Assembly: GCA_927443375.1 (NCBI GenBank) | Contig: CAKMKL010000147.1 | Location: 1 to 34,362 of the forward strand | Source: an uncultured Paenibacillus sp. | GTDB lineage: Bacteria > Bacillota > Bacilli > Paenibacillales > Paenibacillaceae | Direction: 5' to 3' | DNA: 34,362 bases | Shown: positions 18,412-22,412 of the stretch, in pieces | Layout: each line of letters starts with the position of its first letter | Numbering within the stretch: position 1 is the first letter of the stretch | Notes under the pieces: model-generated | Told to the model about the DNA's origin: nothing | Database searches by the model: none | Seen by the model: the letters and a program-made list of their open reading frames with translations, nothing else | Position numbers and translations under genes: made by a program

Positions 18412-18441
18412 TTGACAAAGATAGAGTTGAAAATATATTGT
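18412..18441 (+). promoter_or_regulatory. Candidate promoter of the c-di-GMP-regulated operon
   Basis: TTGACA (18412-18417) with TATATT (16-nt spacer) or TATTGT (18-nt spacer), just upstream of the riboswitch. Confidence 0.55.
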
Positions 18442-18469
18442 AAAGTAAAATTATCCAATGAAAATTTAA

Positions 18470-18566
18470 ACAATTATTGGCAAAATTCTCCGAAAGGGAA
18501 TGACGCAAAGCCATGGATCTACAGTCTCATTTTATCGGGACCAGGACAGCCAGGTTGCCTAAGAGC
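18470..18566 (+). ncRNA. Cyclic-di-GMP-I (GEMM-I) riboswitch aptamer
   Basis: Order of GEMM-I signatures: ttGGCAAA, P2 stem attctcC-GAAA-GggaaT with GNRA tetraloop, GACGCAAAGCC, P3 stem gtctc/gggac, ggaCAGCCAGGTTGCC receptor/closing segment; GGCAA (18479-18483) complements TTGCC (18555-18559). Confidence 0.87.
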
Positions 18567-18613
18567 CGGAACGTTTGAGACTTAGTACGTTCTAAATGAC
18601 TATTTAAGCAGCC

Positions 18614-18642
18614 GCCTGTACTCCCTGAGTACAGGTTTTCTA
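18614..18642 (+). terminator. Riboswitch expression-platform terminator hairpin
   Basis: cctgtact-ccctg-agtacagg followed by ttttct, between aptamer and first gene. A competing hairpin gaacgt...acgttc lies at 18569-18592. Confidence 0.75.
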
Positions 18643-18681
18643 TGTTCGCAAGATAAATACACAATGGATAGGGTGGAGCTT

Positions 18682-20316
18682 TTGAAAACAGTCGCAGATT
18701 ATATGGCTGAGGCACTACGAAACCTCGGTGTAACACATTCCTTTGGTATCATCGGCAAATCTATTTGTCCCGTTGTTCTCAAAATGGTTGATTACGGCAT
18801 TGAGTTTATTCCAGGAAGACATGAATCAAACTCCGGATTCGAAGCTGCCGGCTATGCTCTTAAAACCGGCAATCTCGGGGTAGCCTTCGGCACCTCGGGA
18901 CCCGGCGGAACGAATTTACTTACTGCTGCAGCCCATGCCAAGGCGAATAACCTTCCTGTCCTGTTTATTACCGGACATCAGTCCATAAAGGAGCTGGGGA
19001 TTCCCCAGTGCCAGGATTCCTCATCCTATCTGGCGGATCTGGCAGAGATGTTCAGACCCGCTACACTCTTCAGCAAGCTGGTAGAACGCGGCGATCATTT
19101 CAGTACCCTTTTTAATCATGCTGTCTCTATTGCCCTCGGCGGTCAGCGCGGACCGGTCCACTTATGCCTCCCCTTTGATGTCCAGACCGAAAGGCTCGAA
19201 GAATGCCGAATTGTAATTCCTGAGCGCGAGCCACTCCTCAGTATTGCTAATTTCGAGCGGGTAGTCTCCGCCATTAACAAGGCCTCAAATCCCCTTATTA
19301 TCGCCGGCAAGGGTGTGAACCGTTCCGGTGCGCACAAGGAGCTTGTGCAGCTGGCAGAAACGTTCAATATTCCTGTCGTTACTTCTCCCGGGGGCAAGGG
19401 TGCCATTGCCTGGGATCACCCGCTGTATCATGGCCCGGTCGGTGTGGGAGGCTGCAGACATGGTGATGATTTGCTGAACAGCAGCGATCTATATATTGTA
19501 CTTGGTTCACGCCTCAGTGATATGACCATCTGTAATCTTAAGGCGGAGAATCATCCGGCTACCCTGATCCAATTCGATGTCGATCCAACTTATGTCGGTA
19601 AAATTCTGAACTCGCAGACGATCCCGGTTAGCGGTGATGTACGTGACAATCTGGCTTACTATCTGAAGAATATTGATGGGGTCACTATTAAAAAACATGA
19701 GACAAAAGCCGATGTTCATTATGCAGAAGAATTACCAGTATTGCCTAAACTTTCACTTGCTTCAGTAATGAGTACATTTAGCGACTTGATCCCATATAAC
19801 AGTTCAGTTTTTGTAGATGATGGCAGCCATGGCTTCAATGCCGTGAAATGGTACAACGTGAAAAAACCCGGCAGCTTTATCTTCGATGCTTATTTTGCCT
19901 GCATGGGCAATGCCATCGGTATGGCTATAGGTGCTAAAGTTGCTGCGCCGGAAGAAACGGTATTCTGCATTACCGGAGACGGTTGCTTTATGATGCTTGG
20001 CGCGGAGATAAACACCGCAGTGTGCAAGAACATTCCGGTTATTTTTATCGTGGTCAACAACATGCAGCTGGACATGGCTCTAAAGGGTATGGAAAAAACA
20101 ACCGGCAGAATCGATGGCACGATCTTCGAAGTTCCGATGGACGCAGTGAAATTCGCCGAATCACTCGGAGCGGCCGGCTACAAATGCGAGACAGCTGACC
20201 AATTCTCTGCAGCCGTAAATGCTGCGGTAGAATCAAACCGGGTAGCGGTTATTGAGCTGCTGACGGACCGTGATGAAATGCCTCCAACAGCCCACCGTAC
20301 CTTAAATCTCAACTAA
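18682..20316 (+). CDS. Acetolactate synthase-like thiamine diphosphate-dependent enzyme
   Basis: RHESNSGFEAAGYA (catalytic Glu region), GTSGPGGTNLLTAAAHAK, ThDP motif GDGCFMMLGAEINTAVCKNIPVIFIVVNN. ATG 18664 is in frame, but GGTGGAG followed by TTG 18682 looks like the better initiation site. Confidence 0.88.
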   Translation: MKTVADYMAEALRNLGVTHSFGIIGKSICPVVLKMVDYGIEFIPGRHESNSGFEAAGYALKTGNLGVAFGTSGPGGTNLLTAAAHAKANNLPVLFITGHQSIKELGIPQCQDSSSYLADLAEMFRPATLFSKLVERGDHFSTLFNHAVSIALGGQRGPVHLCLPFDVQTERLEECRIVIPEREPLLSIANFERVVSAINKASNPLIIAGKGVNRSGAHKELVQLAETFNIPVVTSPGGKGAIAWDHPLYHGPVGVGGCRHGDDLLNSSDLYIVLGSRLSDMTICNLKAENHPATLIQFDVDPTYVGKILNSQTIPVSGDVRDNLAYYLKNIDGVTIKKHETKADVHYAEELPVLPKLSLASVMSTFSDLIPYNSSVFVDDGSHGFNAVKWYNVKKPGSFIFDAYFACMGNAIGMAIGAKVAAPEETVFCITGDGCFMMLGAEINTAVCKNIPVIFIVVNNMQLDMALKGMEKTTGRIDGTIFEVPMDAVKFAESLGAAGYKCETADQFSAAVNAAVESNRVAVIELLTDRDEMPPTAHRTLNLN

Positions 20317-20389
20317 CCGGATTCATTGGCACAAATCAAACCTATCCTTTTCTTTCGTGATCCAATCAAATTTCAGGAGGTATCTTCTG

Positions 20390-20754
20390 TGGAAAATACC
20401 GTTAACAGCGGTCTAAAACACTTCTCCAATCTGTCCGGCGACTATGGCGCCAAAGCTCTGGCTCCGATTAAAGAGCATTTTCCGGAATTGGCTGAGTACA
20501 TCATGGGTAATGCCTATGGCGACATTTTTCAGCGCACTACGATCGGTTCTGACTGGAAGGAGATTGCCGTCATTTCCTCTCTGATCACCATGGGACAGTT
20601 TGAGCAATTAGGAGTTCATTATGTAATGGCGCTACGAGTCGGTATGACCGTGGATCAGATCAAGGGGATCTTGCTGCATCTGGTACCGTGCGTCGGTGCT
20701 CCAAGAGTCATTTCCGCCTTTAATGTCCTGCTTGCCACACTCGAAGAAATCTAA
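20390..20754 (+). CDS. Carboxymuconolactone decarboxylase/AhpD-fold family protein
   Basis: GDIFQRTTIGSDWKEIAVISSLITMGQFEQLGVHYVMALRVGMTVDQIKGILLHLVPCVGAPR resembles the CMD fold. SD aggagg precedes GTG at about 20390. Confidence 0.78.
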
Positions 20755-20827: not shown

Positions 20828-20901
20828 AAGGCAAATTATCCCATTACCTAAAGTTTGTTGTCGAAAACCGGCTTAAAACTTCTAGTTTTTGGATATATAA
20901 T

Positions 20902-20923
20902 AGCCGACCAATGCAGGCCGGCT
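20902..20923 (+). other. Hairpin in leader of the STAS-like gene
   Basis: agccgacc-aatgca-ggccggct (7 of 8 pairs), preceded by aaaact-tct-agtttt; no T run, so not a typical terminator. Confidence 0.5.
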
Positions 20924-20971
20924 CATATTTAGCAGAAGACACACACATTCAATTTTGGGAGAGATGAGCAC

Positions 20972-21316
20972 ATGGGTAAATTTATTTTGAAAACCGATTC
21001 TGTTAACAAGATCATTAATGTCGAATTAGAGGGTACCTTCTCCAATGAGGACGGCCTTAAATCGATTCAAGCCTATCAGCAGACGGTCAATCCGATCACA
21101 CCCTCTGAATATGCTCTGCAGATCGACTGCAGAAAGCTAAATGTTACTGCTCCAGATGTTGTGCCGCTGCTCGAAGGCTGCTTCATCATGTTCAAAGCAG
21201 ACGGTTTCGAAAAAGTCAGCCTGACCCTTGAAAACAATCCAATCCTCAAAATGCAGCTCGCCCGTCTTGGCCGCAAAGCAGGACTAGAGAACCTGGAAAT
21301 CACTTCGATCGTTTAA
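20972..21316 (+). CDS. STAS/SpoIIAA-like small protein
   Basis: 114 aa, alternating beta/alpha pattern, VELEGTFSNEDGLKSIQAYQQTVNP and LQIDCRKLNVTAPDVVPLL; family call from pattern only. Confidence 0.5.
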   Translation: MGKFILKTDSVNKIINVELEGTFSNEDGLKSIQAYQQTVNPITPSEYALQIDCRKLNVTAPDVVPLLEGCFIMFKADGFEKVSLTLENNPILKMQLARLGRKAGLENLEITSIV

Positions 21317-21351
21317 ACGCATCACTCCATTAACTTTACAGGAGGGCTATC

Positions 21352-22344
21352 ATGGCCGGAATATGTATAAGGGATATTGATATCTATCATCCAAGTAAAA
21401 AGATTGATAATGACTTTTTCATCCAGCATTTTGACGAAAAAGGTATAGATATCCGCGGACTCCTGACAGCTCTGGGCCGTGAGAGCCGCTACAGTATTGA
21501 CAGCGAGGAAGAAAATTCTCTGACTATGGCTTTTGAGGCAGCAAGCAATGTACTGGACAAGACGGGCCTTACCGGCGCTGACATTGACCTTATCGCTTAT
21601 GCCAGCCAGACTCCTGAATATATCTTTCCTACGAACTCGCTGATGATTCACAGGCTGATCGGCGGTGCCTCCCATACCATTTGCATCGACAGTAATGCGA
21701 ACTGCGCCGGTATGACCGCTTCGGTGGAACAGGTAAGCCGCCAGATGATGGCTAACCCGAGAATCCGCCGGGCACTGGTTATCGGCTCGGACCATGTGGC
21801 CCCGCATGCCGACAGGAATGATCCTGTCTACTACGCCAACTTCGGAGACGCTGCCGCGGCAGTGATCCTCGAGCGTGATGAGAATTCCGTTGGCTTCATC
21901 GATTCCATTTACCAGACAGACACCTGCGTCTATGGCAATTCGATGTTCCCTGCAGAAGGCATGGCGAACCTTGGCCGCCGCGGGGTAGGCAAAGGAGAGT
22001 TCAACGTTAAGTTCATTCCTTTTGACGATTCCATTTGTGTGGATGCAGCCTCCGAGTCTATCAATACACTTCTGAGTGATAACGGGATCGCTCCTGAAAC
22101 CATCAAAGCGGCATGCTTCTCCCAATTATCCCTGCCGAACATTCGTGCCGTATCTGACAAAACCGGTATCGGCAGCGACGCAGCCGTCTATATCGGCGAT
22201 GAATTCGGCTATACATCAACGAGCAGCCCCTTTGTCGCTCTTCACAAAGCGGTGACTACCGGCAAGATTGAGCGGGGTGACAAGGTTCTTTTCTGGACGG
22301 TCGGCGCCGGCTGGCAGAACGTAGCCTTTGTGATGGAATACTAA
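21352..22344 (+). CDS. Beta-ketoacyl-ACP synthase III-like (FabH-like) enzyme with atypical catalytic residues
   Basis: SNANCAGMTAS nucleophile motif (Cys118), GDAAAAVILE, C-terminal KAS III half (FGYTSTSSPFVALHKAVTTGKIERGDKVLFWTVGAGW). Confidence 0.87.
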   Translation: MAGICIRDIDIYHPSKKIDNDFFIQHFDEKGIDIRGLLTALGRESRYSIDSEEENSLTMAFEAASNVLDKTGLTGADIDLIAYASQTPEYIFPTNSLMIHRLIGGASHTICIDSNANCAGMTASVEQVSRQMMANPRIRRALVIGSDHVAPHADRNDPVYYANFGDAAAAVILERDENSVGFIDSIYQTDTCVYGNSMFPAEGMANLGRRGVGKGEFNVKFIPFDDSICVDAASESINTLLSDNGIAPETIKAACFSQLSLPNIRAVSDKTGIGSDAAVYIGDEFGYTSTSSPFVALHKAVTTGKIERGDKVLFWTVGAGWQNVAFVMEY

Positions 22345-22365
22345 GCACTTATTTATTGCACTAAC

Positions 22366-22412
22366 AAAAAAGCAACCTGAAGGTTAATAGCTAACCTTCA
22401 GGTTGCTTTTTG
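22366..22412. terminator. Bidirectional terminator between the KAS III-like gene and glpK
   Basis: aaaaagcaacctgaaggtta-atagc-taaccttcaggttgcttttt, near-perfect 20-bp stem. Confidence 0.93.

What the first reader, a model, noticed from the sequence alone, without database searches (positions are those of the whole stretch)
18412..22412. Candidate undescribed pathway: ThDP enzyme + CMD-fold + STAS-like + KAS III-like operon
Four co-directional genes lie between the riboswitch and a strong bidirectional terminator. The AHAS-like protein keeps the ThDP motif (GDG...NN) and catalytic Glu region, but no ilvN, ilvC or ilvD is nearby, so branched-chain amino acid synthesis is unlikely. ThDP carboligation with KAS III-type acyl chemistry suggests an acyloin, alpha-hydroxyketone or derived acyl-ketone signal or antibiotic. 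From memory, the xenocyloin (xcl) cluster of Xenorhabdus also pairs an ALS-like enzyme with FabH-like proteins; I could not verify this here, and it would be precedent rather than identity. Product and substrates are inference.
Basis: partly seen in the sequence, partly recalled or inferred. Interest (0 to 1): 0.8.

Follow-up and report, generated by a model that had tools for sequence, protein, structure and literature searches.

The report
c-di-GMP-switched acyloin-ester gene cluster
A Paenibacillus operon, switched by a c-di-GMP riboswitch, pairs a thiamine-dependent carbon-joining enzyme with a close relative of the ester-forming enzyme XclC of the insecticidal xenocyloin pathway; it probably makes an unknown small molecule, and its two-gene core (a STAS-fold protein plus the XclC-like enzyme) recurs across Bacilli and often sits beside chemotaxis receptors.

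Summary
In detail: a c-di-GMP-I riboswitch, then ThDP, CMD-fold, STAS-fold and KAS III-like genes in one direction, closed by a strong bidirectional terminator.

The constant core is two genes, STAS-fold plus KAS III-like (adjacent at 79 of 80 loci), across Bacilli. ThDP enzymes of two unrelated types stand beside one clade of this KAS. The KAS family keeps the acyl-binding Cys but has Ser and Tyr where FabH has catalytic His and Asn, as an ester-forming acyltransferase might. c-di-GMP riboswitches precede the module in several separate architectures, and sensor-less chemoreceptors are repeatedly adjacent.

Best reading: c-di-GMP-controlled synthesis of an acylated acyloin, perhaps a signal. 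Substrates, product, riboswitch polarity and STAS role are inferred or unknown. New variant of a known kind.

The parts
16772..18022 (+). Methyl-accepting chemotaxis protein, 416 aa: two N-terminal membrane helices with almost no external loop, HAMP and signalling domain, no sensor domain found. Lies upstream of the riboswitch; an associated gene, not shown to be in the operon
   Evidence: Pfam MCPsignal 127 bits, HAMP; at the same place in 15 of the 18 named riboswitch-bearing ThDP1 loci, and inside the operon in the ThDP2 type
18412..18439 (+). Sigma-A-type promoter TTGACA-16-TATATT
   Evidence: 11 of 12 consensus matches
18469..18562 (+). c-di-GMP-I riboswitch aptamer
   Evidence: Rfam RF01051, 68.4 bits, E 1.5e-11; orthologous aptamers by model R1
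18553..18613 (+). Conserved alternative pairing of the expression platform: GGTTGC (18553-18558) with GCAGCC (18608-18613)
   Evidence: Seen in most of 15 aligned leaders; ON or OFF not decided
18614..18636 (+). Intrinsic terminator of the riboswitch
   Evidence: -14.9 kcal/mol, z -4.07; present with compensatory changes in 18 of 18 window-type loci and with another sequence in ThDP2 operons
18682..20316 (+). ThDP-dependent carboligase-like enzyme, type 1, 544 aa
   Evidence: Pfam TPP_enzyme N/M/C; best solved relatives BbmA and CsmA; start from conserved Shine-Dalgarno
20389..20754 (+). CMD-fold protein, 121 aa, PcaC-like; candidate decarboxylase (inferred)
   Evidence: Pfam PF02627 39.4 bits against 23; present in every ThDP1 locus, in no ThDP2 locus
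20798..20827 (+). Second, conserved promoter-like element (TTGCA...TATATT) in the CMD-STAS spacer, flanked by Spo0A-box-like motifs at 20785-20791 and 20859-20865
   Evidence: Spacer alignment of 19 loci; box coordinates
20972..21316 (+). STAS-fold protein, 114 aa
   Evidence: No Pfam or NCBIfam hit; AlphaFold2 model pLDDT 89 matches RsbS/SpoIIAA-type STAS structures, TM about 0.5-0.7; adjacent to KAS at 79 of 80 loci
21352..22344 (+). KAS III-like protein, 330 aa, XclC clade: Cys118 kept, Ser257 and Tyr287 in place of FabH His and Asn
   Evidence: Pfam ACP_syn_III and ACP_syn_III_C; FabH fold, TM 0.80-0.91; residues invariant in 32 of 32; tree
22368..22410 (.). Bidirectional intrinsic terminator between the operon and convergent glpK
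   Evidence: -30.3 kcal/mol, z -9.3; glpK by NCBIfam

Best explanation
The operon makes an acylated acyloin-type small molecule under c-di-GMP control. Proposed steps: (1) c-di-GMP binding by the leader RNA decides between termination and read-through (element shown; polarity unknown). [quoted passage not shown] (3) The CMD-fold protein, present only with this ThDP type, decarboxylates the beta-keto acid to the alpha-hydroxyketone (inferred, weakest step). (4) The XclC-type KAS III-like enzyme loads an acyl group on Cys118 and passes it to the acyloin hydroxyl to form an ester, not to a malonyl carbanion (inferred from clade membership and loss of His and Asn). (5) The STAS-fold protein is a constant, probably non-phosphorylated partner of the KAS, as subunit, acyl or ligand carrier, or regulator (association shown, role unknown). 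Because sensor-less chemoreceptors, and in one operon type a GAF protein, are encoded beside the module, the product or the module's state may be read by chemotaxis (inferred).
For: The KAS clade holding the window protein and the ThDP2-linked proteins contains a protein from a Xenorhabdus bovienii ThDP-KAS-KAS cluster (47.6% identity to the window; support 96/84 for the joint clade, 100/98 for Xenorhabdus with the ThDP2 type). XclB and XclC are stated to form ester bonds in xenocyloin biosynthesis (PMC4425429). FabH His and Asn are replaced by invariant Ser and Tyr while Cys is kept in all 32 members. Three mutually distant ThDP enzymes (type 1, type 2 and the Xenorhabdus one; 21-26% identity) stand beside members of this one KAS clade (about 46-56% identity), which is hard to explain unless the ThDP product feeds the KAS. 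ThDP2 groups with CsmA (99/99; [quoted passage not shown] c-di-GMP-I riboswitches precede the module in ThDP1, ThDP2, pair-only and pair+MCP architectures. STAS adjacent at 79 of 80 loci.
Against: ThDP1 itself is only about 25-31% identical to every relative compared, so its reaction is not fixed. Many lineages carry STAS-KAS with no ThDP enzyme nearby, so the KAS acceptor need not be an acyloin there. The Xenorhabdus cluster has a second KAS (XclB position) and no STAS. It was identified as xcl by organism, gene order and memory; the original paper is not held. The Ser/Tyr substitution fits but does not prove acyl transfer. Forcing all ThDP-linked KAS into one group without exceptions is rejected (p-AU 0.025), because a ThDP-less protein (L068) nests among them. 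No metabolite is known.
Confidence: 0.55

Rival explanations
1. [quoted passage not shown]
For: CybE/CybF and CqsB3/CqsB1 pair ThDP enzymes with KAS III-like enzymes on such substrates (PMC12395478; PMC7466098). ThDP2 is nearest to CsmA, described as a CybE homologue. CybF is itself said to begin with O-acylation.
Against: The window KAS belongs with XclC, whose reaction is stated to be ester formation; the His and Asn used for decarboxylative condensation are lost. No acyl-CoA ligase, ammonia lyase or cyclase gene lies in the operon.
Confidence: 0.15
2. STAS-KAS (with GAF and ThDP proteins in some operons) is a cytosolic ligand-sensing complex that reports acyl-CoA or oxo-acid levels to the sensor-less chemoreceptor; the enzyme folds serve as binding proteins.
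For: Sensor-less MCPs lie next to the module in several architectures, inside the operon in the ThDP2 type and directly after KAS in L116. The pair is widespread without any other enzyme. STAS folds are signalling domains. c-di-GMP control.
Against: Catalytic Cys of KAS, and Glu plus ThDP motif of both ThDP types, are invariant, as expected of live enzymes. The Xenorhabdus relative sits in a biosynthetic cluster. Most pair-only loci have no MCP.
Confidence: 0.2
3. The ThDP enzyme is an ordinary acetohydroxyacid or acetolactate synthase and the KAS an ordinary FabH, housekeeping genes that happen to be adjacent.
For: Family-level matches to TPP enzymes and ACP_syn_III.
Against: TIGR00118 292 bits against cut-off 538, AlsS 219 against 551, FabH 115 against 292. 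The genome has ilvB-ilvN-ilvC elsewhere. FabH triad lost. Conserved four-gene order.
Confidence: 0.03

Closest known systems
Xenocyloin cluster xclA-xclB-xclC of Xenorhabdus bovienii (Proschak et al. 2014, cited in PMC4425429; here L195)
   Same: ThDP acetolactate-synthase-like gene next to KAS III-like genes; the last KAS is in the same clade as the window KAS with the same Cys / SQF / GYT signature.
   Different: Window has one KAS, not two; a STAS-fold gene in place of XclB; a CMD-fold gene; ThDP enzyme only 23% identical; c-di-GMP riboswitch and neighbouring chemoreceptor. Product unknown.
Furanolide pathway CybE/CybF (cyanobacterin) and the related synthases CsmA and BbmA
   Same: ThDP enzyme giving alpha-hydroxy-beta-keto acids plus a KAS III-like enzyme; BbmA and CsmA are the best solved relatives of both ThDP types, and ThDP2 groups with CsmA.
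   Different: No CoA ligase or ammonia lyase in the operon; the CybF sequence could not be compared here; ThDP1 is only about 30% identical to BbmA and CsmA.
Carbazole pathway CqsB3/CqsB1 and NzsH/NzsJ
   Same: ThDP acyloin coupling followed by a KAS III-like enzyme (PMC7466098).
   Different: No carbazole synthase (CqsB2), carrier protein or aminotransferase in the operon.
KAS III-like ester-forming acyltransferases (CerJ, Pau29)
   Same: KAS III fold with loss of the His needed for decarboxylative condensation (PMC4425429).
   Different: CerJ uses a Cys-His-Asp triad; here the residues at the FabH triad positions are Cys-Ser-Tyr, and no sugar pathway is nearby.
SpoIIAA/RsbV/RsbS STAS proteins (anti-sigma antagonists)
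   Same: STAS fold.
   Different: No conserved Ser/Thr at the phosphorylation position and no kinase gene beside it.

Membership tests
Xenocyloin-type (xcl) cluster | ThDP acetolactate-synthase-like enzyme adjacent to KAS III-like gene | tested here: met
Xenocyloin-type (xcl) cluster | KAS of the XclC clade | tested here: met
   47.6% identity; clade support 96/84 and 100/98; identity of L195 as xcl rests on organism and gene order
Xenocyloin-type (xcl) cluster | Second FabH-like protein XclB | tested here: not met
   Window and the 79 Bacillota loci have a STAS-fold gene next to KAS and no second KAS there
Xenocyloin-type (xcl) cluster | Indole acyloin ester product | not testable with these tools
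   Needs metabolite analysis
Furanolide CybE/CybF pair | CybE-type ThDP enzyme | tested here: inconclusive
   ThDP2 groups with CsmA 99/99; ThDP1 unplaced, 29-31% to CsmA and BbmA
Furanolide CybE/CybF pair | CybF-type furanolide synthase | not tested
Carbazole (cqs/nzs) cluster | Carbazole synthase CqsB2/NzsI homologue in cluster | tested here: not met
   The four ORFs are ThDP, CMD, STAS-fold and KAS
Acetohydroxyacid/acetolactate synthase | Passes curated acolac_lg or AlsS cut-off | tested here: not met
   292 against 538; 219 against 551
Acetohydroxyacid/acetolactate synthase | ilvN/ilvC neighbours | tested here: not met
   Found elsewhere in the genome
FabH (KAS III) | Cys-His-Asn triad | tested here: not met
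   Cys118 kept; His to Ser257, Asn to Tyr287 in all 32 members
FabH (KAS III) | FabH fold | tested here: met
   TM 0.80-0.91 to FabH structures
STAS anti-sigma antagonist (SpoIIAA/RsbV) | STAS fold | tested here: met
STAS anti-sigma antagonist (SpoIIAA/RsbV) | Conserved phosphorylatable Ser/Thr at start of helix 2 | tested here: not met
   Family sequences read by eye against the DS motif; no conserved Ser/Thr there
c-di-GMP-I riboswitch | Rfam covariance score over gathering cut-off | tested here: met
   68.4 against 35 bits
PcaC carboxymuconolactone decarboxylase | Passes TIGR02425 cut-off | tested here: not met
   38 against 155.7 bits; general CMD Pfam met
Known anti-phage defence system | PADLOC model match | tested here: not met
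   No match for five proteins

The most novel reading that the evidence does not exclude
The STAS plus Cys-Ser-Tyr KAS pair, with its ThDP and GAF partners and the adjacent sensor-less chemoreceptor, is a self-contained make-and-sense system: cells make an acyloin-ester signal according to c-di-GMP level and read it through the co-encoded receptor, linking the second messenger for settling to a diffusible cue for swimming.
Probability: 0.2. Interest if true: 0.88.

Novelty: new variant of a known kind. Interest (0 to 1): 0.62.

Why it matters
It ties a biosynthetic enzyme clade known from one insecticidal pathway to c-di-GMP control and chemotaxis genes across Bacilli. It names a testable two-gene core of unknown role (STAS fold plus KAS III-like enzyme without the usual His and Asn) that family models would label only as generic fatty-acid synthesis. 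If the product is a signal, this would be a new class of c-di-GMP-dependent cell-cell communication in common soil bacteria; if not, it still offers ready candidates for new acyloin-type natural products.

Tried and rejected
Housekeeping AHAS or FabH: rejected by curated cut-offs, the ilvBNC genes elsewhere and the lost triad. Anti-sigma antagonist: fold fits, phosphorylation site absent, no kinase gene beside it. Anti-phage defence: no PADLOC match. STAS by sequence against the PDB and Pfam: nothing convincing; only the fold comparison worked. XclB and the Xenorhabdus ThDP enzyme could not be placed on trees (branch lengths of 10). Riboswitch polarity: an alternative pairing and the terminator were found, but they do not overlap in a way that decides ON or OFF. 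Spo0A boxes: clear only in the window's own clade, not a general property of the pair. Literature: no held paper was found that links these genes in Paenibacillus to c-di-GMP; the original xenocyloin paper is not held.
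Full report
What is there. Between a sigma-A-type promoter (18412-18439) with a c-di-GMP-I riboswitch (18469-18562, 68.4 bits) and a strong bidirectional terminator (22368-22410) lie four co-directional genes: a ThDP enzyme (18682-20316), a CMD-fold protein (20389-20754), a STAS-fold protein (20972-21316) and a KAS III-like protein (21352-22344). The ThDP start at TTG 18682 and the CMD start at GTG 20389 are better supported than the longer mechanical ORFs. 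The window is part of a fragmented assembly; the nearest named relatives by KAS are Paenibacillus auburnensis and P. ihuae (98-99%).

Not a housekeeping AHAS or FabH. The ThDP protein scores 292 bits on the acetolactate synthase model (cut-off 538) and the KAS 115 on FabH (cut-off 292). The same genome carries the 3' part of ilvB followed by ilvN and ilvC on contig C285, and an ilvB 5' part on C6 (named by reading the sequences).

The conserved unit. Searching 300 family genomes and 400 class genomes with the KAS and reading the neighbourhoods shows that the constant core is two genes, STAS then KAS. In the 80 named loci from the genome collection, STAS is adjacent at 79, the exception being Xenorhabdus. 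Of the 80, 44 are ThDP1-CMD-STAS-KAS, 15 are ThDP2-STAS-KAS (usually MCP-GAF-ThDP2-STAS-KAS), 20 are the pair alone and one is Xenorhabdus. The pair occurs in Paenibacillus, Saccharibacillus, Oceanobacillus, Neobacillus, Gottfriedia and Robertmurraya; Cohnella has the ThDP2 form. The 80 are the best-scoring of 243, so proportions lean toward the window's kin. A phylum-level search (300 genomes) for the STAS protein found it outside this family only once, without KAS.

The KAS. The model has the FabH fold. Cys118 is invariant, but the residues aligned with FabH His (HQAN) and Asn (GNT) are Ser257 (SQF/SQL) and Tyr287 (GYT) in every one of 32 members, down to 37% identity. In KAS III-like acyltransferases such as CerJ and Pau29, loss of the His needed for decarboxylative condensation goes with ester formation (PMC4425429).

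The link to xenocyloin. The genome scan returned Xenorhabdus bovienii T228 (L195). There a ThDP gene is followed by two KAS III-like genes, the layout of xclA-xclB-xclC, and the last one is 47.6% identical to the window KAS with the same signature. On a tree it falls with the ThDP2-linked proteins (100/98), and this group joins the window's ThDP1-linked group (96/84). A paper on paulomycin states, citing Proschak et al. 2014, that XclB and XclC form ester bonds in xenocyloin biosynthesis (PMC4425429). The locus was matched to xcl by organism and gene order; the original report is not held.

The ThDP enzymes. Type 1 (window), type 2 and the Xenorhabdus enzyme are 21-26% identical to each other, while their KAS partners are about 46-56% identical. 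The simplest reading is repeated recruitment or replacement of a carboligase beside the same acyltransferase. Type 2 groups with CsmA (99/99; [quoted passage not shown] Type 1 has BbmA and CsmA as best solved relatives, but at only about 30% identity, so its substrates are open. Catalytic Glu and the ThDP motif are invariant in both types. A rigid grouping of all ThDP-linked KAS without the ThDP-less proteins nested in or beside them is rejected (p-AU 0.025), so the association has also been lost or gained more than once.

The STAS-fold protein. Sequence searches gave nothing convincing, but a confident model matches RsbS, RsbV and SpoIIAA. The phosphorylation position shows no conserved Ser or Thr. 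Its role is unknown; constant adjacency suggests a partner of the KAS. In Xenorhabdus a second KAS stands in its place.

c-di-GMP and chemotaxis. A model built from 14 aptamers finds them just upstream of the module in 28 of 80 named loci, plus one distant hit in L200, and in 20 of the other 53 sources, window included, leaving out one weak hit. They occur in the ThDP1 window clade, in ThDP2 operons (there before MCP), before the pair alone, and before STAS-KAS-MCP in L116. The whole window genome has only 7 such riboswitches, so this is far above chance. The terminator after the aptamer is kept with compensatory changes; ON or OFF could not be decided. The adjacent MCPs are short (about 360-455 aa) and Pfam finds no sensor domain in those scanned. 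Counts are of genomes, many closely related, so they overstate independence; the number of distinct architectures is the better measure.

Mechanism and standing. The best-supported account is c-di-GMP-controlled synthesis of an acylated acyloin (0.55). Shown: gene content, order, riboswitch, residue changes, clade membership, recurrent association. Inferred: substrates, decarboxylation by CMD, ester formation, STAS role, sensing by MCP. It works like the xenocyloin pair and shares the XclC clade, but is not filed as an xcl cluster because XclB is absent and the product is unknown. It is a new variant of a known kind. The most novel open reading is a make-and-sense signal system.

Noticed in passing
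window 20785-20865: CMD-STAS spacer has a conserved promoter-like element flanked by Spo0A-box-like motifs (TTCGACT, TGTCGAA) in most loci of the window's clade; TGTCGAA occurs in 13 of 47 ThDP1-type upstream regions against about 2 expected.
   Followed up: partly
window 13077-13304 and 13548-15140: T-box leader upstream of a phosphoglycerate dehydrogenase (serA) gene.
   Followed up: no
L041, L045, L051 and relatives: c-di-GMP riboswitch followed by a tight five-gene operon MCP-GAF-ThDP2-STAS-KAS in Cohnella and several Paenibacillus.
   Followed up: partly
L116 6179-9072: c-di-GMP riboswitch, STAS, KAS and a sensor-less MCP in one short operon in a distant Bacilli family.
   Followed up: partly
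L068 6035-10181: A KAS of the ThDP clade with no ThDP gene nearby; its neighbours look like a TOMM-type peptide cluster and a different STAS-like small protein (read by eye, not tested).
   Followed up: no
L048 6314-6643 and L054 8200-8538: A second STAS paralogue downstream of KAS in two genomes.
   Followed up: no
G000:C218:8278-8512 (L078, L079): Two c-di-GMP-I riboswitches in tandem, about 75 bases apart, in the window's genome; downstream gene not examined.
   Followed up: no
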